Below are positions 1 through 9,475 of a stretch of 9,475 nt of DNA, piece after piece (positions within the stretch are counted from its first letter, which is position 1; the number at the start of each line of letters is the position of its first letter). The notes beneath the pieces were generated by a model. That model worked only from the letters and a program-made list of their open reading frames with translations, ran no database searches and was not told the origin of the DNA. The translations under genes were made by a program, and so were the position numbers. Where the stretch lies: NCBI GenBank assembly GCA_037439705.1, contig JBBIVP010000074.1:1-9475 (forward strand), in the 5' to 3' direction. This DNA comes from JBBIVP01 sp037439705 [NCBI: bacterium] (lineage in GTDB: Bacteria; JBBIVP01).

Positions 1-760
1 ACTCAAGCCTGCCAAAATTTTCATCCATTATTTTTCTGATTTCTTTTACATCGTCTTTTAGGGAGTTTACATAAATTGATAGATAATGTGTCGAATAATC
101 AAGTATTACCGGATCATCAATTTCCCTTGCTATGTCTAAAAATGTTGATTTTAGCTTATCCTTAAATCCAAGCCAGTCAGCACATATATAGGCACTCATC
201 AAAACAGCAAAAATTTCATTGGTTTTTGATGTCGTGTTCAGTTCTTCAATATATGTATTATAACATTCCTGAGCAATTTCTGGTATCATAGATGGTTCCA
301 ATTCCTTTGCCAAGAAAATTGCTTTAAGATACATACCATTCTCTTTCAGATGATTGATTGCTTGCCTATATTCACCCCTTCTTAAAAATTGCCTTGCTTC
401 AAGAATGATGCGTATCCAATCAGGCATCTCCTCCTCTTTCTTTTGTTCTACCGAATTGTTTTGCTGGCTTTTTCCATATTCAATTTGCCCTTCCTGCTTA
501 CTTGCTTCCTTTTTCACAAAATTGTTTTTCAAACTTTCAAAATCAGACCTTCCAATTTCTTTTTTCCGATTTCCATATTCGGTTGTAAAATTTGGCCTGC
601 CTTGTTCTTTTGGCAAATTTCTGTATTTTGTGGGCAAGCTAATGTATATCAGCCCACCTATTATGGGAATCAGGAGGTATTTAATTTTTTTCAAAAATTC
701 CAATTTTTCCCCTTCGCTGAAGAACCGGACTGAGTAGTATTTTCCCTTCTTTTTCTTCAC
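1..760 (-). CDS. Membrane-anchored protein with TPR-like helical domain (3' end beyond window)
   Basis: No recognised family. An open frame of 253 codons runs off the left edge. It begins with a basic N-terminus (KKKKGKYYSVRFF), then has one hydrophobic segment at about residues 26-43 (KYLLIPIIGGLIYISL), a polar Lys/Gln/Glu-rich linker (about 45-112), and from Trp115 a helical region. The stretch RRGEYRQAINHLKENGMYLKAI resembles a TPR unit. I infer a short cytoplasmic tail, one membrane pass and a helical interaction domain. The start is uncertain. GTG at 760-758 is used here, but no Shine-Dalgarno precedes it. A TTG at 703 has a good GAAGGGG upstream, but using it would remove part of the charged N-terminus. 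An out-of-frame ATG at 764 could be joined by a 1-nt indel. The gene follows the decarboxylase gene on the same strand after 231 bp, so it probably has its own promoter. A plus-strand open frame overlapping this region is a shadow. Confidence 0.72.
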   Translation of the reverse strand, partial: MKKKKGKYYSVRFFSEGEKLEFLKKIKYLLIPIIGGLIYISLPTKYRNLPKEQGRPNFTTEYGNRKKEIGRSDFESLKNNFVKKEASKQEGQIEYGKSQQNNSVEQKKEEEMPDWIRIILEARQFLRRGEYRQAINHLKENGMYLKAIFLAKELEPSMIPEIAQECYNTYIEELNTTSKTNEIFAVLMSAYICADWLGFKDKLKSTFLDIAREIDDPVILDYSTHYLSIYVNSLKDDVKEIRKIMDENFGRLE

Positions 761-934: not shown

Positions 935-997
935 ATGAGTGCCACAAATCAACAGGTTGAATCTATTGAGAGAAATTGCCTAAAATTTAATCTATAA
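935..997 (+). CDS. Possible 20-residue micro-ORF with strong ribosome binding site
   Basis: ATG at 935 is preceded by GAGGAGGG with a 4-base spacer, one of the best Shine-Dalgarno matches in the window. The frame runs 20 codons to TAA at 995-997, and its last 6 bases overlap the stop end of the convergent decarboxylase gene. The peptide (starting MSATNQQVE, ending CLKFNL) is polar and not recognised. The same frame is open upstream back to a TGA at 857 and would encode a very hydrophobic run, but it has no ATG, GTG or TTG start there. This could be a real small peptide, the tail of a decayed gene, or chance, since the minus strand here is simply purine-rich. No convincing plus-strand promoter was seen. 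Confidence 0.2.
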
Positions 998-1921
998 TTT
1001 TTTTAAGAAATGCTCCCATGTCCTTTTGAGTCCTTCCCTTAACCTAATTTTTGGTTCCCAATTCAGGACATTTTTTGCAAGGGATATATCGGGCTGTCTT
1101 CTGTGAGGGTCGTCTTCCGGAAGGGGGAGGTATTTTATCTCCAGTTTTTTACCTGAAATTTCCATAAAGAGTTTTGCAACCTCCTTTATCTTCCATTCCT
1201 CCGGACTTCCAAGATTCATTGGACCGTTAAAATCTGATTCCATAAGTTTTATCAAACCCTCAATCATATCATCTATGTAGCAGAAACTTCTTGTATGTTC
1301 TCCGTTCCCGAACACTGTTAAGGGTTCATCATTCAGCGCCTGGTTTATAAAGTTAGGTATAACCCTTCCATCATCAAGCCTCATAAAGGGTCCGTATGTG
1401 TTGAATATCCTTGCTATCTTCACATCAAGTTTATGAATTTTGTTATAAGCCATTGTAAGTGCTTCTGCGAATCTCTTGGCTTCATCGTAAACCCCCCTTG
1501 GTCCAACTGGATTCACATTACCCCAGTATGTCTCTTTTTGTGGATGTTCAAGAGGGTCTCCGTAAACCTCTGATGTTGATGCGAGAAGAAATTTTGCTTT
1601 TTTATGAAGGGCAATGCCGAGAGCATTGTGGGTTCCATACGCTCCAGCCTTTAATGTCTGTATTGGATATTGAGCATAATCTTTTGGGCTTGCAGGTGAG
1701 GCAAGATGGAAAACTTGGTGAATCTCTCCTTCAATAAAGATTGGTTTTGTAATATCATGTTTTATAAAGAGAAATTCTTTTCTCTTCATAAGGTCTTCAA
1801 TGTTTGAAAGGTTCCCTGTAAGGAGATTATCAATACATATCACCTCATTTCCCATTTCAATGAGTTTTCGTGACAGATGAGAACCTATGAAACCAGCTCC
1901 ACCTGTGATAAGAACCCTCAT
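992..1921 (-). CDS. uxs: UDP-glucuronate decarboxylase (UDP-xylose synthase), extended SDR family
   Basis: This enzyme converts UDP-glucuronate to UDP-xylose and CO2 with bound NAD+, supplying pentose for surface polysaccharide or glycans in the cytosol. The 309 residues match the usual bacterial length. The Rossmann motif GGAGFIGSH is at residues 7-15, HLASPASP at 72-79, the catalytic TSE at 116-118 within STSEVYGDP, and the SDR pair Tyr145/Lys149 in GVYDEAKR. Later come RIFNTYGP (171-178) and [10 protein letters not shown] (270-279), where Arg275 fits the arginine typical of this decarboxylase family. [19 protein letters not shown] is a strong signature separating it from dTDP-glucose 4,6-dehydratase and UDP-glucose 4-epimerase. 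Its ATG overlaps the gltX stop (ATGA), and with little Shine-Dalgarno of its own it is probably translationally coupled. The UDP-glucose dehydrogenase that would supply its substrate is not in the window. Confidence 0.93.
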
Positions 1922-3306
1922 TTCTCTAAGACCATTTTTATTCTTCTTATGGATTCCTCAACGCCCAGCGATTTAATTAGATCAAATATACCAGGACTGA
2001 CTGTTCTTCCCGTGAGGGCAAGTCTTACTGCCTGGGCTACATGAAGAAGTTTTAAACCGAGTGAATCTGCTATCTCTCTGAAGCCTTTTTCAAGAGTTTT
2101 TTCATCAACCTCTTCATTCTTCACTGTCTCAAGAAAAGAAGAAACCTTTTTTAAAGCCATTATTCCGTTTTCATCAAAAAACCTTTTACTTCCTTCTTCC
2201 TCGTATTTAAGTTCTCTGAGAAAATAGAAAGCAGACATTTCAGCTACTTCTTTAAGGGTCTTCGCCCTTATTTTTACATGTTCAAGGAGGTAAAGGTATC
2301 CTTTCTCCGGTTTTGGATTTATTCCCATTTTTTTTAAAAATCCTTCAATTAATGGATAGAGTTCTTCGGGCGTTTTCTTCCTCATGTACTCAGCGTTTAA
2401 CCAGTTAAGTTTTTCTATCTTGAAAACGGATGGAGATTTACCAACATCCTTTATGTCAAAAAGTCTTATAAGTTCATCTATTCCGAATATCTCCTGGTCG
2501 CCGTGCGACCATCCTAATCGGACGAGAAAATTGAGCATAGCGGAAGGGAGGTAACCTTCATCCCTGTAGCTCAAAAGTGCAGTTGCTCCGTGTCTTTTGC
2601 TCAATCTTCCTCTGTCTTCTACAAGTATGAGCGGAACATGGGCAAATTTAGGAATTTCTTTCCCAAGGGCTTCATAAAGAAGTATCTGTTTCGGAGTATT
2701 GTTTATGTGGTCTTCACCCCTTATTATATCAGTTATTCTCATATCAATGTCATCTACAACTACTGATAGATGATATGTTGGCATCCCGTTTGAACGAAGA
2801 ATGACAAAGTCCTCTATTTCTTCTGCATAAAAAATGAGTTCCCCCCTTATCATGTCCTTGACCATTATAGTTCCCTCCAATGGAGATTTAAATCTTATTG
2901 CAAATGGCTGAGGTTTTATTTCTTTCAAATTTCTGCATTTTCTATCATATTTTGGAGGGATTCCGCTTTTTAATGCAGTTTCCCTTTTTCTTTCAAGCTC
3001 TTCCGGAGAGCAGTAGCATCTGTAAGCCTTTCCAGACTCAAGGAGGAGGTTAGCAATCTCTCTATACCTCTCAAGCCTTTTGCTCTGAAAATACGGTCCT
3101 TCATCCCAGTTTAAACCAAGCCACTCTAATCCTTCAAGGATGTTCTTTACAAATTCTTCTGATGAGCGTTCAAGATCTGTATCTTCAATCCTCAAAATGA
3201 ATTTTCCGTTGTGGTGTCTCGCATACAGCCAGTTAAACAGTGCAGTCCTCGCTCCTCCTACATGGAGATAACCCGTTGGAGAAGGTGCAAATCTAACCCT
3301 TACCAT
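1918..3306 (-). CDS. gltX: Glutamyl-tRNA synthetase
   Basis: Class I aminoacyl-tRNA synthetase that charges tRNA-Glu with glutamate using ATP. The 462 residues are normal for bacterial GluRS. The HIGH-type motif is [11 protein letters not shown] (8-18), RIEDTD is at 39-44, and the KMSKS variant RLSKR is at 234-238. A zinc site of the E. coli type is intact: Cys97 and Cys99 (CYC), Tyr120 and Cys124 (YDRKC). The remaining C-terminal half is the helical anticodon-binding region. Whether it is discriminating or also charges tRNA-Gln cannot be read from these motifs. The start shares one base with the stop of the upstream dehydrogenase gene, with AAGG 7 bases upstream of the ATG. The stop overlaps the decarboxylase start by 4 bases, so the three genes form a coupled series. 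Confidence 0.97.
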
Positions 3307-4334
3307 CAGTCAACCTTAAGCACAACTTTTCCAATGACTTCCTTTTCTTCAAGAATTCTGTGCCCCTCTTTTGCTTCTTTAAGTGGAAGGACTTTATAAA
3401 CCACCGGCTTGAGCACCCCCCTTTTCACAAGTTCAAGGACTTCAAACAGGTCACCCTTTGACCCCATTGTTGAACCAATTATTGATAATTGCTTGAAAAA
3501 TATATGTCTCAGGTCTATCTCAGCGTTAAATCCTGAAGTAGCGCCACAGATGACAATTCTTCCGCCCCATTTGAGAGAGGCTATTTTTTTATCCCAGTTC
3601 ACTACTCCTGTGTGGTCAAGAATTAAATCCACGCCTCCACCTGTAATTTCTTTTATTCTTTTTGGTATGTCTTCTTTTGAGTAGTTTATGACTTCATCTG
3701 CTCCAAGCTCTTTTGCCTTTGCAAGTTTTTCATCGCTTGATGCACCTGCTATAACATAAGCTCCAATCGCTTTTGCAATTTGAATCGCTGCTGTGCTGAC
3801 ACCACTTCCAGCAGCTGTGATGAAAACCGTTTCCTGTGGCTGGAGATTTGCTTTTTTCACAATCATATGCCAGGCAGTTAGAAAAACGAGAGGAATGGCA
3901 GATGCTTCTTCAAAAGACATTCCTTCAGGAAAAGGAAGTACATTTTCCTGGGGAATAACGACATATTCCGCATATCCACCATTTATACCTTCTCCGAGGA
4001 TGTGGTAATTTTTACAGAGATTATCTCTTCCAGATAAACACATTTTACATTTTCCACAGCTCACTCCCGGAGAAATCAGAACCTTTTCACCTGTTTTCAA
4101 TCCATCAACTCCTTCTCCCAGTTCTGCTATTTCCCCTGCTATATCTGCTCCGAGAATGTGGGGATATTTGAGTTTCAAACCAGGAATTCCTCTTCTCACC
4201 CATATATCAAGGTGATTTAATGCGCAGGCTTTAATTTTTACAAGGACCTGCTTAGGAGAAGGTTTTGGAGTCGGAATTTCTTCATACTTTAACACATCTC
4301 TGTTCCCATGTTCGTAAATCACCACCGCTTTCAT
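3306..4334 (-). CDS. Zinc-binding medium-chain dehydrogenase/reductase, quinone-oxidoreductase-like
   Basis: An NAD(P)H-dependent oxidoreductase of the MDR superfamily, 342 residues. The N-terminal GroES-like domain has the structural zinc loop, with Cys93, Cys96, Cys99 and Cys107. The usual catalytic zinc ligands of alcohol dehydrogenases are not evident: where Cys is expected the protein has Asn40 in ALNHLDIWVRRG, and the GHE motif is replaced by GADIAG (62-67). That N-x2-D-x3-R-x-G pattern is typical of quinone oxidoreductases and enoyl reductases. The nucleotide-binding fold begins at about 170 (TAAGSGVSTAA). A reductase acting on enones, quinones or aldehydes is the best guess; the substrate is unknown. 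The ATG has GGAGG 6 bases upstream. It is the first gene after the 121-bp gap and overlaps gltX by one base. I see no metabolic reason for that pairing. Confidence 0.88.
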   Translation of the reverse strand: MKAVVIYEHGNRDVLKYEEIPTPKPSPKQVLVKIKACALNHLDIWVRRGIPGLKLKYPHILGADIAGEIAELGEGVDGLKTGEKVLISPGVSCGKCKMCLSGRDNLCKNYHILGEGINGGYAEYVVIPQENVLPFPEGMSFEEASAIPLVFLTAWHMIVKKANLQPQETVFITAAGSGVSTAAIQIAKAIGAYVIAGASSDEKLAKAKELGADEVINYSKEDIPKRIKEITGGGVDLILDHTGVVNWDKKIASLKWGGRIVICGATSGFNAEIDLRHIFFKQLSIIGSTMGSKGDLFEVLELVKRGVLKPVVYKVLPLKEAKEGHRILEEKEVIGKVVLKVD

Positions 4335-4455
4335 CTCCTGCCTCCAGAATTTTTAAAAAAGTTATCACAGAAGGCAATTTAAAACAAACTTAGGTTTTAC
4401 AGTCTATTACCTTTTTACCAGTTGAAAGAGGTTTAAGAACTTTCTCCTTAACTTT
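4335..4455 (-). other. 121-bp gap between khpA and the dehydrogenase gene
   Basis: This is the longest gap inside the minus-strand series, so it may hold a second promoter. Candidate elements on the minus strand are weak: a TTGTTT followed about 15 bases later by GATAAC, and a TTGCCT followed by an AT-rich run. There is a weak stem (ACCTCTTT against AAAAAGGT, one mismatch, 8-base loop), but no U-tract follows it, so I do not call a terminator. The clear element is the GGAGG ribosome binding site just before the dehydrogenase ATG. The khpA frame stays open for 21 codons past its TAA, which I take as chance. Confidence 0.35.
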
Positions 4456-4689
4456 TTATTCTATTATTTCTAAGTGAATTCTTTTGTTAATTTTATTTCC
4501 TATAGCGTTAAGGAGGGTTCTTATTGCTTTTGCATTTCTTCCCTCCTTCCCTATGACCTTGCCGAGGTCCTCTTTGGCAACCCTTAACTCTATTACATTT
4601 GTCTGGGTGCCTTCAAGGACATTCACCTTTACTTCGTTTGGCTTGTCCACTATGAGCTTCGCTATGCTCTCTACCATTTCTTTAACCAT
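4456..4689 (-). CDS. khpA: KhpA-type KH-domain RNA-binding protein
   Basis: A small cytosolic RNA-binding protein of the KhpA (YlqC) family, known in Firmicutes to partner with KhpB/Jag and affect cell envelope and division. Its 77 residues are the usual length. The single KH fold has the GxxG loop at 47-50 (VIGKEGRNAKAIR), flanked by the expected strands (VNVLEG, NVIELRV) and ending in a short strand (IHLEII). Charged residues inside the GxxG loop (Lys48, Glu49) are normal. The ATG lies inside the end of rpsP with an 8-base overlap, and GGAGGTGA sits 6 bases upstream when measured from GGAGG, a strong ribosome binding site. Position directly after rpsP is the classic location of this gene. 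khpB is not in the window. Confidence 0.93.
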   Translation of the reverse strand: MVKEMVESIAKLIVDKPNEVKVNVLEGTQTNVIELRVAKEDLGKVIGKEGRNAKAIRTLLNAIGNKINKRIHLEIIE

Positions 4690-4945
4690 TGCTCACCTCC
4701 GTCTGTGGAATTTCTTTTTCTCTAATTTTCACAAGTCGTGAAACTGCAGGAGTAAGCTCCGCCCCTTTTTTAATCCATTCTCTTAATTTTTCCATTTCAA
4801 TATGGGATTTATTCACGAGAGGGTCGTAATACCCGAGCATATCAATGAAGTTGGTGTATCTCGGTTTTTTTGAATCCACAACCACAATCCGATATGAAGG
4901 CTTTTTCTTTTTTCCTGTTCTTGCAAGTCTTATTCTCACTGCCAT
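4682..4945 (-). CDS. rpsP: 30S ribosomal protein bS16
   Basis: Structural protein of the small ribosomal subunit, 87 residues, which is normal for bS16. The conserved start MAVRIRLARTGKKKKPSYRI is followed by VVVDSKKPR, then LGYYDPL and the helix around EKLREWIKKGAELTPAVSRL. The frame is open 4 more codons upstream to a TTG at 4957, but the ATG at 4945 is the real start: it begins the family consensus, and GGAGG lies 5 bases upstream of it, inside what would be those extra codons. The gene begins one base after the ffh stop codon and overlaps khpA at its end, so all three are almost certainly co-transcribed and balanced by coupling. The C-terminal tail (REKEIPQTEVSNG) is short and polar. Confidence 0.96.
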   Translation of the reverse strand: MAVRIRLARTGKKKKPSYRIVVVDSKKPRYTNFIDMLGYYDPLVNKSHIEMEKLREWIKKGAELTPAVSRLVKIREKEIPQTEVSNG

Positions 4946-4946
4946 T

Positions 4947-6237
4947 TTATCCTCCAAAAAGATTCAGGATGTTTATATTTTTAAACCTTTTCATAATTTT
5001 TTTCAAGTTTTTATAAGATTTAAGAACTCTATTGACATCAGCCACTGTTGTCCCACTTCCTTTTGCAATCCTCAATCTTCTGTTGCCATCAATTATCTCG
5101 GGATTTGCCCTTTCCTTTTTGGTCATAGATAGGATAATTGCCTCAGTTTTTTTCAAACTTTCCTCTGCGAATAGAAAATCAATATCATTATTCAATCCTG
5201 AGGAACCAGGAAGAAGAGGCAGGATTTTTCTTAATCCCCCCATCCTTTTTAAAATGGCTATATGCTCAAGGAGGTCATCAAGGGTAAACTCCGCTTTTTT
5301 GAGTTTTTCTTCCATTTTCCTTGCCTTTTCCTCATCTATAGTTTTTGCAACTTTTTCCATAATACCTTCAATGTCTCCAAAGGAAAGGAGTCTTTTTGCT
5401 ATTCTATCTGGCAAAAACCTTTCAAGGTCATCCAGCTTTTCTCCGGTTCCAAGAAATTTTACTGGTCTTCCAGTGACTTTACGAACAGAAAGGACCGCTC
5501 CTCCTCTTGTATCTGTATCCACTTTTGTGAAGACCAATCCCGTAATTGGAACTGCCCTTTTAAATTCGGTTGCAATTCTTATTGCTTCCTGTCCTGTCAT
5601 CGCATCAATAACGAGGAGGTGCTCAGATGGTCTTATCTCATTATAAATTTTATTGAGTTCCTTCAACAATTCTTTATCAATGTGAAGCCTTCCTGCAGTG
5701 TCAAAAATTGCTACATCGTAGGCTTTACTTTTTGCAAACTTTAATCCCTTTGATGCAACCCTTACCGGATCTGTATAGCCTTCCGGGTCAAAGAAATCAA
5801 CTCCTGCTTTTTGAGAAAGAGCACCTTTTCAAATCACATGGAATAAGGATAACGGATTTTCCCCTTTCTCTCAGAAATAGTGCAATTTTTCCGCAGGTGG
5901 TTGTCTTTCCGCTTCCATTAAGTCCACTTATCATGATTGAAGAGGGTTTCCCCTTAAGAATCAGTTCTTCGCCTCCACCCAAAAGGTTTTTTATCTCGTC
6001 ATAAAGGGTGAATATGAAAAAATCTCCAGGAGAAACTCCCTGTGGAACCTCTTTTCCACTTATTTTCTCTTTGATTCTGTTAACTATCTCATGGGCTATT
6101 TCATAATGAACATCTGCATCTATGAGGTTTTTTATTGTTTCAGAAGTAATCTCTTTAAGAAGGGAATCCGTCATAACTGCTATTCCACTCACCCTGTTGA
6201 TTATTGTAGAAAATTTTTGTGTCAGTCCCTCAAACAT
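4947..6237 (-). pseudogene. ffh: Signal recognition particle GTPase Ffh, disrupted by a frameshifting deletion
   Basis: Ffh binds 4.5S/6S SRP RNA and signal sequences and delivers ribosomes to FtsY at the membrane. The N-terminal frame (6237 to 5824) holds the N domain and P-loop GLNGSGKTTT (about 105-114) and reaches CDLKR. It then leaves frame and stops at 5797. The other frame resumes at GCT 5822 (ALSQKAGVDFF) and continues through DTAGR, DAMTGQ, TKVDTDTRGGA, GTGEK and the M domain (MGGLRKILPLLPG, RLRIAKGSG) to the stop. The missing piece is the conserved RPAA-x2-QL insertion-box stretch. About 8 codons are expected there but one base is present. Restoring 23 nt gives 437 residues, a normal length. 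No ATG or GTG allows the second half to be made alone at full length. ATG 6237 has GGAG 10 bases upstream. This is either a sequence or assembly error, strain variation or true loss; both halves look under normal constraint. Confidence 0.9.
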
Positions 6238-6241
6238 GACA

Positions 6242-7435
6242 TTATTTCTCCAGCGGAATTATTTTCACTTTTAAATCCTTTATGTCGGGAAGCATTTCGT
6301 TCATAACGCAGAGTTGAAATACGAAAGAGTAATTTCCCTTATTTAATTTTTCAAATCCGTTGAGTTTCCATGAAAGGGAGAATCCGTCCTCCTTTTTTGA
6401 AAAAATAATGTTTCCGTTTATTTTTTCTTTTATTTCAGAGGGAATAAGTAAGTGGGCAATGAAGGAGTTTTCTGAACCTTTAAATTCAATTTCTCTCACA
6501 TCAGGGACAGTTCTTTCTTCCATATTGTTCAATTTTCCAGGTGAGACCATACTGCCATCCGGAAGAAGTATATTAAACTTTTCCAGCGCATTTGTAAAAT
6601 CAAAGGAGAGGTTTAAAAATGCTTCGTCTACAAATGTTGAGGGTTTTATGGGGATATTTACTTCGGTTGGAAAATTTCCGCATGCTCTATAAGTAATGGA
6701 TGTTCTCAAAGCCTTTGGGGTCTGAATCCCTTTTGCTATTCTCATCCTATAATTCATAAGTTTTACAAGTCGGACAGGTCCATCTGTATAACCTGCAACA
6801 TCCGCAGAGAGGTCTTCCTCTGTTCTTTCAAATTTTATCTTTCCTTTAAGGGATGAAATATTGAGGTGAAGTCGGAAATTCTTGATAAGGTTTTCTCGGA
6901 CACCTTTTATTAAAAAATGATTAAGAACTGCATGGTTTGAAGAATTTATGGACCCGTAAGAGAAGAATTCGGAAGAAAAGAGGTCATTGAACGGGAGATA
7001 GGATATATATTTTTTGGATTCCCTTTCTCCTGAGCCTACATAGAAAAAACAGGTTTTTCCATCCATTTCAACTTGTATTTCGTAAATATCTCTCATATCC
7101 CTGAATGGTGATTTTTCTCCACAATCAGATGCCATAAAAACGATTTCGTCATCGCCGTTAAACTTTCCGAACTTCCATCCATCTCTTCTTTTTTTAAAAT
7201 CTCCATTATCCCTTACATAAGTGGTAAGGTAATTTCCATTTTTGTCAACCTCATCTATTTGAAAAGAAACAGACCCCCTTTTTCCATCTCTGTAAACGGA
7301 GACACTTATCTCATCAACAGGCTTTTTTTCAATAAGTGGTAGTTCCTTTGCTTTTATTATTACAGGGGGGTCAACGAGAAGAATAAAATTTATTAAAATC
7401 CAGTAGCCCATTTTCAAAGATTTTTTACAATTCAT
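6242..7435 (-). CDS. Exported protein of unknown function
   Basis: Not a family I recognise. The 397 residues begin with a signal-peptide-like segment: basic NCKKSLK, a hydrophobic core YWILINFILLV at 11-21, and a plausible cleavage after Ala29 (VIIKA, then KELP). The mature part opens with a beta-rich region (about 38-130) with SFQIDEVDKNGNY and GDDEIVFMASDCGE, an Asp/Asn-rich pattern seen in several uncharacterised secreted bacterial proteins. The rest alternates short strands (for example SLKGKIKFERTEED, FIAHLLIP), suggesting a periplasmic or surface beta-sandwich protein. No catalytic motif or lipobox was seen. ATG 7435 has no Shine-Dalgarno; an in-frame ATG at 7411 (residue 9) is an alternative but would drop the basic n-region. 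It ends 4 bases before ffh, whose ribosome binding site lies in its last codons, so it is probably the first gene of the ffh-rpsP-khpA transcript. Confidence 0.75.
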   Translation of the reverse strand: MNCKKSLKMGYWILINFILLVDPPVIIKAKELPLIEKKPVDEISVSVYRDGKRGSVSFQIDEVDKNGNYLTTYVRDNGDFKKRRDGWKFGKFNGDDEIVFMASDCGEKSPFRDMRDIYEIQVEMDGKTCFFYVGSGERESKKYISYLPFNDLFSSEFFSYGSINSSNHAVLNHFLIKGVRENLIKNFRLHLNISSLKGKIKFERTEEDLSADVAGYTDGPVRLVKLMNYRMRIAKGIQTPKALRTSITYRACGNFPTEVNIPIKPSTFVDEAFLNLSFDFTNALEKFNILLPDGSMVSPGKLNNMEERTVPDVREIEFKGSENSFIAHLLIPSEIKEKINGNIIFSKKEDGFSLSWKLNGFEKLNKGNYSFVFQLCVMNEMLPDIKDLKVKIIPLEK

Positions 7436-7614: not shown

Positions 7615-9475
7615 ATGAAGGATAAAGAGCAAAGGCAGAAACTACTCATAAAGAAGGCGATTGAGGAATACACAAAAAGAGGAGACTATAAACTTGCTAT
7701 TGAGGAATGTAAGAAATATCTGAACCTACCGGGAATTCTTTCAAAGGATTATCTTGAAATGAAAAAGAAAATGGCGGACCTGTATGAAAAACTTAAGGAT
7801 TATCCAAATATGATTAAAGAATATCTGGAAATTACGGATATATACATAAAAGAAGGATTTGCATCAAAAGCTCCATCCCTTCTGAGAAAAGCCATAACCC
7901 TTGCCCCTCAAAATGAAAAAATTTTAGAAAAGATGACCGAAGTTTATGAGGCTATGGGGTGGAGAAGCGAGATGGTAAAAACCTACCTTCAGTTAATAGA
8001 GGTATATGCTGAAAGAAAAGAACATTATAAGGCTATTGATATTTACAGGAAACTTCTTGAAATTGATCAGGGTAACATTCAGAACAGAGTAAAGTTTGTA
8101 GATTACCTGATTCACATAGGATATACAGACGAAGCAAAGGAGGAAATTAACCTACTGCTTGAAAAACTTGCTACAGCGGATGACAAAAGAGTTATCCTTC
8201 CTATCTTTAAAAAAGCTCCAAATCTATTTCCAGATGAATCCCTTAAACTGATAGCGGAGGCTTTTTATGCTAATGGGGAATACAAGGCAGGAATAAATGT
8301 AATAAAGCATTATATGGAGAAAACGGGCAGGAAGCGGGAAGCAGATATATTTGAACTACTTGCATATGGTTTTCAGGCTATCGGAGATAAAGAAAAATCT
8401 CTTATAGCTCTAAGGGGGCTCCTGGATATATACAAAAAACAGAAAGACAATAAAAAATTAAGAAATGTGTATGAAAGAATTCTTCAAATAGACCCAGAAA
8501 ATCAGGAAGTTAAAGCCTTTCTCAGCAAAACAGAAATTGAAGGAGAAGAGGATTTTTACTCAAAACCTCCATCCCTTATAAAAACAGATAGCCTTTCACT
8601 GGCTCTTACAAAGCTTGAGATTTATATAAAGTTTCCTTTTGAAGGGTACAGAGAAAAGGCAGAGGAAATTTTAAGGAACATAAACATCCTTTCCATTGAG
8701 GAAGAACTGTATCTTGACAGAATAATGAAAATATTAGAAAAACTCGGTCACCAGGAACTTTTTTCTCTTGCTGCCTACAGGTTAGCCTATCTTTGGAAAG
8801 AGAAAGGAGACACAGAGAAAGCTTTAAAATATCTCAACCTTTCGCTCTCTGCCTGGCCCGATAATACCCTTGCAAAAGAACTTCTTTCAAAGATATTACC
8901 ACAAAAAGAGGTTTCAGAAGAAGAGGAGATAGTTACAGAGGTGGAAATAGAGGAGGTGCCCAAGGAATCCATTCCGATAGAGGTGGAAGAAGAAAAAATA
9001 GGACAAGAAGAAGAATTTAAAGTTACTCCTGTTGAAGAGGTAAAGGATGGTGAATATGACCTTGAAAAGGCACTTATCCATGCTGAAGAGGAATTTCGGG
9101 AAGAGGTTAAAGTTGCCCCCCCTGAGCCTGAGGAAGAGATAAAAATTGAATTGCCCGAATACAAAGAAAAACCAGAAGAGGAAATAAAAGTTGAGCTGCC
9201 CGAATATAAAGAAAAACCTGAAGAAGAAATAAAAATTGAAATGCCTGAGGAATTTGAAAGTCCGAAAGAAGAAAAAATTTATGAAGAAATCCTTGTAGAG
9301 CCACTAAAAGGGGTTGAGGAGATTTCAAAAGAAGAAAGGATTGATGCAAACTATATAGATTCTCTCATCAAAGATGCCCAGTTTTTTAAAGAGATTGGAG
9401 ATTATAACACAGTGAAGGAAACATGCAATGAGATATTAAAACTTGACCCCAAAAATGTTTTTGCAACCTCTCTCT
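7615..9475 (+). CDS. Large TPR-repeat protein with acidic repeat linker (3' end beyond window)
   Basis: An open frame of 620 codons runs off the right edge. Residues 1 to about 428 are almost all helical TPR-like units, for example KRGDYKLAIEECKKYL, a unit around KEHYKAIDIYRKLLEID, GDKEKSLIALRGLL, and KGDTEKALKYLNLSL with a trailing WPDN. From about 430 to 575 there is a strongly acidic Glu/Lys/Pro/Val linker containing three 15-residue tandem repeats. TPR-type sequence resumes at about 576 (YIDSLIKDAQFFKEIGDY, then ILKLDPKN). No signal peptide or membrane segment is visible, so it is probably a cytosolic scaffold for protein-protein contacts. Partner and pathway are unknown. The ATG at 7615 is the first in-frame start and fits the promoter just upstream. 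It is divergent from the minus-strand series. A Ser-rich open frame on the opposite strand is the shadow of the Glu-rich linker. Confidence 0.9.
   Translation, partial: MKDKEQRQKLLIKKAIEEYTKRGDYKLAIEECKKYLNLPGILSKDYLEMKKKMADLYEKLKDYPNMIKEYLEITDIYIKEGFASKAPSLLRKAITLAPQNEKILEKMTEVYEAMGWRSEMVKTYLQLIEVYAERKEHYKAIDIYRKLLEIDQGNIQNRVKFVDYLIHIGYTDEAKEEINLLLEKLATADDKRVILPIFKKAPNLFPDESLKLIAEAFYANGEYKAGINVIKHYMEKTGRKREADIFELLAYGFQAIGDKEKSLIALRGLLDIYKKQKDNKKLRNVYERILQIDPENQEVKAFLSKTEIEGEEDFYSKPPSLIKTDSLSLALTKLEIYIKFPFEGYREKAEEILRNINILSIEEELYLDRIMKILEKLGHQELFSLAAYRLAYLWKEKGDTEKALKYLNLSLSAWPDNTLAKELLSKILPQKEVSEEEEIVTEVEIEEVPKESIPIEVEEEKIGQEEEFKVTPVEEVKDGEYDLEKALIHAEEEFREEVKVAPPEPEEEIKIELPEYKEKPEEEIKVELPEYKEKPEEEIKIEMPEEFESPKEEKIYEEILVEPLKGVEEISKEERIDANYIDSLIKDAQFFKEIGDYNTVKETCNEILKLDPKNVFATSL
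9127..9261 (+). repeat. Three tandem 45-bp (15-residue) repeats in the acidic linker
   Basis: Units lie at 9127-9171, 9172-9216 and 9217-9261. The peptide unit is PEEEIKIELPEYKEK; unit 2 differs by Ile to Val, and unit 3 decays at its end (EMPEEFES). Synonymous differences between units (for example TAC/TAT, TTG/CTG, CCA/CCT) show the peptide has been kept while the DNA diverged. They form a charged, probably extended spacer between TPR blocks. Confidence 0.9.

What the first reader, a model, noticed from the sequence alone, without database searches (positions are those of the whole stretch)
5797..5850. ffh broken by a net 23-nt loss exactly at the conserved RPAA-x2-QL segment
The frame reads ...CDLKR ending at 5824, then one base (5823), then ALSQKAGVDFF in another frame from 5822. 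In E. coli Ffh the residues between the matching Arg and the matching Leu-containing helix are PAAIKQLE plus one, so about 8 codons are missing and the frame shifts. 1291 nt plus 23 gives 438 codons, a normal Ffh. Both sides look intact, with no further stops. Ffh is normally essential and single-copy, so this is an assembly error, a low-frequency variant, or a real loss compensated by another copy or by recoding.
Basis: partly seen in the sequence, partly recalled or inferred. Interest (0 to 1): 0.65.

Follow-up and report, generated by a model that had tools for sequence, protein, structure and literature searches.

The report
ffh gene broken by 23-base deletion
The gene for Ffh, the core protein of the bacterial protein-targeting particle, is missing 23 bases in this sequence and is broken there; this is most probably an assembly or single-template error or an ordinary dead copy, not a new kind of biology.

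Summary
The minus-strand gene at 6237-4947 is ffh. Its first 138 codons (6237-5824) end at CDLKR, the Arg aligned with T. aquaticus Ffh residue 138. One spare base follows (5823), then 291 codons in the +1 frame, starting at the position aligned with residue 147. Eight residues (PAAxxQLx) are absent: net loss 23 nt. All 24 full-length relatives that I aligned have them, without length variation. Codon usage puts the frame switch at 5830-5821.

As written, the record gives no working Ffh. The first frame stops at 5799-5797; the second has no ATG/GTG/TTG before 5669, beyond the DTAGR motif. Recoding could not replace the missing residues.

Of 686 other genomes, 608 have ffh over the family cut-off. 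Of the other 78, 30 were inspected: one ffh was broken inside a contig, by N runs of ill-fitting length (an assembly gap). 48 had no match and were not followed.

I favour a deletion made in assembly or in one template molecule; a real, recent null allele remains possible. Neither reads nor the window's own genome were available, so this stays undecided. The finding is ordinary.

The parts
5824..6237 (-). N-terminal part of ffh: N domain and P loop (GLNGSGKTTT), 138 codons ending CDLKR
   Evidence: (the whole 146-residue frame matches TIGR00959 positions 1-142, 5.1e-32)
5823..5823 (-). the junction: one spare base; eight codons (aligned with T. aquaticus Ffh 139-146, PAAxxQLx) are absent here, net -23 nt
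5797..5823 (-). stretch where the first frame runs on for eight unrelated residues to a TGA stop (5799-5797)
4947..5822 (-). rest of ffh in the +1 frame: rest of the G domain (DTAGR, TKVD, DTRGG) and the complete M domain; 291 codons and stop
   Evidence: TIGR00959 150-428, 1.6e-105; SRP_SPB 1-91 of 91
4682..4945 (-). rpsP (ribosomal protein S16), 87 codons, open; its ATG begins one base after the ffh stop, and a GGAGG lies in the last codons of ffh (4955-4951)
4456..4689 (-). khpA (KH-domain protein), open; the order ffh-rpsP-khpA is that of the relatives with long enough flanks

Best explanation
The sequence record carries one small deletion, net 23 nt, in the ordinary chromosomal ffh of an unidentified bacterium. 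It was most probably made during assembly (two ends joined with a stretch lost, or a wrong path at low coverage) or in one or a few template molecules, and is not fixed in the living population. As written, the gene makes a 146-residue fragment (N domain and P loop plus eight wrong residues) and no functional Ffh. Shown: the break, its size and place, and that the rest of the gene is open. Inferred: that the cells themselves have an intact ffh, and how the deletion arose.
For: One lesion in an otherwise clean 9.5 kb: no N, and rpsP, khpA, the dehydrogenase, gltX and the epimerase gene each match their families over most of their length in one frame. The downstream frame is still open and coding-like over all 291 codons, so there is no sign of long decay. 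The gene sits in the order ffh-rpsP-khpA: of 24 relative loci, 15 show both partners downstream, 4 rpsP only, 5 neither (flanks short in these 9). Intact ffh is the rule: 227 of 288 genomes and 381 of 398 are over the family cut-off. The 13 and 17 below it that I inspected were pieces at or across contig ends (11), full length just under the cut-off (2), genomes with only partial FtsY-like or weak hits or none (16), and one in-contig break, G624/L044, which lies at N runs of 117 and 60 nt whose lengths do not fit the missing codons. False pseudogenes from assembly are documented (PMC11017572, abstract and passages).
Against: No reads, coverage or second assembly could be seen, so nothing here shows an error directly. 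A clean 23-nt loss is not a typical base-calling error, and no direct repeat of 9 nt or more lies in 5700-5950 of the present sequence. In PMC11017572 the passages tie frameshifts, unlike internal stops, to a technical cause (coverage) only with low confidence (37%) in the causal model, and its data are mostly genome assemblies rather than metagenome contigs. This Ffh keeps 56 of 66 testable columns that are invariant in the 24 relatives, whereas each relative, left out in turn, keeps 71 of 71 to 71 of 75. The N domain in particular keeps fewer invariant residues than every relative compared (12 of 28 against 17-24 in 11 loci; 11 of 21 against 14-19 in 13 loci). This could be distance from the two phyla compared, or relaxed constraint.
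Confidence: 0.65

Rival explanations
1. A real, recent null allele: the cells (or a strain among them) have lost this ffh and live with a second ffh elsewhere or without SRP.
For: A clean, single deletion with both sides open is what a young mutation looks like. The lower retention of invariant residues would fit some relaxation. Loss of SRP is survivable in S. mutans and, with translation-slowing suppressors, in E. coli (PMC7844537 passages; PMC8299109 abstract).
Against: In each of the 5 genomes of the first relatives there is one full-length Ffh match, the second match being partial and FtsY-like. The window copy sits in the usual neighbourhood, where the working copy would be expected. E. 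coli suppressor strains grow about 5 times slower. No letter-for-letter break of this type was seen in the genomes inspected.
Confidence: 0.3
2. Recoding: a +1 ribosomal frameshift in the 5828-5800 overlap joins the two frames into a working protein.
For: The two frames overlap without a stop between the second-frame stop at 5831-5829 and the first-frame stop at 5799-5797, so a +1 shift there would give one continuous product.
Against: The joined product would still lack the eight residues that 24 of 24 relatives have, among them the conserved motif II Gln whose FtsY counterpart helps coordinate magnesium (PMC1904258 passages). No stabilising RNA structure: z = 0.20, 115 of 200 shuffles fold at least as well.
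Confidence: 0.02
3. A split gene: the two pieces are made separately and act together.
For: Both pieces keep recognisable domains.
Against: The second piece has no ATG, GTG or TTG before 5669, beyond the DTAGR motif, and the cut runs through the GTPase fold with eight residues gone.
Confidence: 0.01

Closest known systems
Ffh / SRP54 (NCBIfam TIGR00959, Pfam PF02881 + PF00448 + PF02978)
   Same: Domain order, P loop, DTAGR, TKVD, DTRGG, complete M domain, ffh-rpsP-khpA neighbourhood
   Different: Eight residues of motif II missing and frame broken; neither piece reaches the family cut-off
Spurious pseudogenes made by assembly (as described in PMC11017572, abstract and passages)
   Same: A frame-breaking indel in a gene that otherwise looks normal
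   Different: Not shown by reads here; the loss is 23 nt, and that study deals mainly with genome assemblies
ffh-null suppressor strains of E. coli and SRP mutants of S. mutans (PMC7844537, passages)
   Same: Would be the living equivalent of a real loss
   Different: Those are laboratory mutants; nothing here shows that this organism lives without Ffh

Membership tests
Functional Ffh (TIGR00959) | One open frame scoring over 473.2 bits | tested here: not met
   N piece 111.2 bits, C piece 353.4 bits, in different frames
Functional Ffh (TIGR00959) | N domain and P loop | tested here: met
   PF02881 1-75 of 75; GLNGSGKTTT, whose Asn occurs in 6 of 24 relatives
Functional Ffh (TIGR00959) | Motif II segment RPAAxxQL | tested here: not met
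   Arg kept, next eight residues absent; present in 24 of 24 relatives
Functional Ffh (TIGR00959) | Remaining G motifs and M domain | tested here: met
   DTAGR, TKVD, DTRGG read by eye in P0002; PF02978 1-91 of 91
Programmed +1 frameshift gene | Shift product equals the full protein of relatives | tested here: not met
   Eight residues would still be missing
Programmed +1 frameshift gene | Stimulating RNA structure at the site | tested here: not met
   z = 0.20 for 5835-5740; pseudoknots are not covered by that prediction
Old pseudogene | Several stops or frame breaks | tested here: not met
   One break only; 291 open codons after it
Assembly or template artefact | Reads disagree with the contig at the junction | not testable with these tools
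   No reads held
Compensated real loss | A second intact ffh in the same genome | not testable with these tools
   No whole genome held for the window

The most novel reading that the evidence does not exclude
A bacterial lineage outside the two phyla compared here has truly lost Ffh in its usual place and lives without the signal recognition particle, or with a relocated ffh.
Probability: 0.06. Interest if true: 0.6.

Novelty: not a real feature. Interest (0 to 1): 0.12.

Why it matters
If it were fixed in a free-living bacterium it would be a natural case of life without the standard SRP GTPase. Far more likely it is a reminder that a broken essential gene in an unplaced contig should be checked against reads first.

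Tried and rejected
Search for a second ffh or for the SRP RNA in the window's own genome: not possible, none held. Rfam on the window: 0 matches at gathering score. tRNA scan: none. A displaced copy of the lost segment in the window: none found by motif in six frames; the one PAA hit, read at 3808 on the plus strand, is unrelated. Viral contigs: 31 pattern stretches, none a relative of the C piece, and 0 matches of a pattern spanning the junction with 0-30 free bases. Direct repeats of 9 nt or more in 5700-5950: none. RNA structure after the junction: none beyond shuffles.

Literature: Ffh with R138 and Q144 (at least 4 of 5 terms) gave 0 papers. Ffh with frameshift, pseudogene and signal recognition particle gave 9 papers, none about a broken ffh as far as titles and abstract starts show (listing only). 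Searches were seen as listings, from which four papers were opened: PMC11017572 (abstract, passages), PMC7844537 (passages), PMC8299109 (abstract), PMC1904258 (passages).

The kinship of the organism was not settled. The 24 aligned relatives are 37-44% identical overall, and only two phyla were reachable. That 'FtsY-like' hits are FtsY is inferred from their partial coverage and score. The roles of Arg138 and Gln144 in Ffh are recalled; the passage read concerns FtsY Arg142 and Gln148 and says that analogous residues act likewise in Ffh.

Limits of the yardstick; 288 genomes, 240 with a match at 1e-20, 227 over the cut-off; 48 without a match were not followed. The 13 below the cut-off were inspected (16 genomes, 3 of them over the cut-off): 4 split between two contigs, 1 piece at a contig start, 1 full length, 7 with only a partial FtsY-like or weaker hit; 398 genomes, 390 with a match at 1e-70, 381 over the cut-off. 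The 17 others were inspected (18 genomes, 1 over the cut-off): 6 with pieces at contig ends, 1 with N runs, 1 full length, 6 with only partial FtsY-like or weak hits, 3 with no match at 1e-8. The match tables are cut, so unlisted genomes rest on the tally alone, and a break near either end of the gene could stay over the cut-off. In one search (101 genomes, all but one also's range of handles) 100 matched the C piece, all 100 listed without a stop inside.

Full report
What is there. The gene on the minus strand from 6237 to 4947 is ffh, the GTPase subunit of the bacterial signal recognition particle. Two open stretches in different frames each match the NCBIfam ffh model: 6237-5797 matches positions 1-142 at 5.1e-32, and 5822-4947 matches positions 150-428 at 1.6e-105. 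Neither alone reaches the curated cut-off of 473.2 bits. Pfam gives the same split: SRP54_N complete, SRP54 GTPase positions 2-42 in the first piece and 51-195 in the second, and the signal-peptide-binding M domain complete in the second.

The exact lesion. The first frame is right up to CDLKR, with the Arg codon at 5826-5824. It then runs on for eight unrelated residues to a TGA at 5799-5797. The second frame begins with GCT at 5822-5820, and base 5823 is left over. Against solved structures, residue 138 of the first piece falls on residue 138 of T. aquaticus Ffh, and residue 2 of the second piece falls on T. aquaticus 148 and E. coli 151. In 24 full-length relatives (14 loci, mostly the best-scoring ones) the eight residues are always present, PAA and QL are identical in all 24, and there is no length variation.

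Not chance. A codon-usage score trained on five other genes of the window, without homology (stop codons count in it), finds its best single frame switch at 5830-5821 (about 170, against -91 for no switch). The second frame is free of stops over more than 282 codons, where the off-frames of those genes have a stop every 12 codons, giving a probability near 2e-11.

What the record would make. The first frame gives a 146-residue fragment. The second frame has no ATG, GTG or TTG until 5669, beyond the DTAGR motif. A +1 slip in the overlap 5828-5800 would give one chain, but without the eight residues, among them the conserved Gln of motif II. [quoted passage not shown] The RNA after the junction folds no better than shuffles (z = 0.20). 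Recoding is thus no rescue.

Real loss or artefact. The rest of the window is clean: there is no N, and the five complete neighbours with known families are each open in one frame. The gene lies in the order ffh-rpsP-khpA. Both partners follow ffh in 15 of the 24 relative loci, rpsP alone in 4, and neither in 5; the flanks are short in these nine. So this is the place of the normal copy. As a yardstick I examined ffh in 288 genomes of one phylum and 398 of another. Of these, 227 and 381 are over the family cut-off. Of the other 78, 30 were inspected: in 10 the pieces are split between contigs or lie at a contig end, and an eleventh, G153, has one piece at a contig start. Two are full length just below the cut-off. 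In 16 there are only partial FtsY-like or weak hits, or none. One, G624, is broken within a contig, at N runs of 117 and 60 nt whose lengths do not fit the missing codons. The other 48, without any match at 1e-20, were not followed. So a letter-for-letter break like the one in the window was not seen, and the one broken gene that was seen inside a contig comes from an assembly gap.

Against my reading. A clean 23-nt loss is not the usual sequencing error, no direct repeat of 9 nt or more lies around the junction, and no reads were available. The absence of such breaks from the yardstick genomes cuts both ways: it says that ffh is kept, and also that assembly rarely leaves a break of this kind in genomes chosen for a collection. 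This Ffh keeps 56 of 66 testable columns that are invariant in the 24 relatives, while each relative, left out in turn, keeps 71 of 71 to 71 of 75. By phylum, it keeps 89 of 122 sites invariant in the 13 Bacillota loci (11 Verrucomicrobiota loci: 86-110) and 68 of 87 invariant in the 11 Verrucomicrobiota loci (13 Bacillota loci: 75-82). The N domain is the most divergent (12 of 28 against 17-24; 11 of 21 against 14-19); the G and M domains lie within the range in one comparison (77 of 94; others 69-86) and below it in the other (57 of 66; others 61-64). This fits a distant lineage, but relaxation is not excluded.

What is known. A real null allele is not impossible in principle: SRP loss is survivable in S. 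mutans and, with suppressors and about fivefold slower growth, in E. coli (PMC7844537, passages; PMC8299109, abstract). Many putative pseudogenes in public bacterial genomes have been attributed to assembly, with low coverage as one cause. In that study's causal model coverage was linked to frameshifts only with low confidence (37%), though simulated and subsampled reads did produce spurious ones at low coverage (PMC11017572, abstract and passages).

Verdict. Its most likely meaning is an assembly-level or single-template deletion in a normal ffh (0.65), next a real recent null allele (0.3). It is ordinary unless reads show otherwise.

Noticed in passing
992-4456 (-): After khpA the often-seen rimM and trmD genes (order recalled) do not follow; a zinc-type alcohol dehydrogenase-like gene, gltX and a sugar-nucleotide epimerase/dehydratase-family gene come next.
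   Followed up: no
6242-7435 (-): A 397-residue open frame directly upstream of ffh with no match in Pfam or NCBIfam at 0.001.
   Followed up: no
2-760 (-): A 253-residue open frame running off the window end with no Pfam or NCBIfam match at 0.001.
   Followed up: no
9133-9245 (+): A 45-nt tandem repeat, 2.5 copies, inside the TPR protein gene, coding for a Glu/Pro/Lys-rich stretch.
   Followed up: no
L044 1057-1173 and 1439-1498: In another genome (G624) ffh is interrupted by two N runs that shift the frame of the middle piece, the first soon after RPAAxxQL; it looks like a mis-sized scaffold gap.
   Followed up: partly
G539 contig C2 18915-19739 (no locus fetched): A weak SRP-GTPase-like match with three stops inside and no other match to the ffh model in that genome at 1e-8.
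   Followed up: no
5940-6237 (-): The N domain of this Ffh keeps fewer invariant residues than every relative compared.
   Followed up: partly
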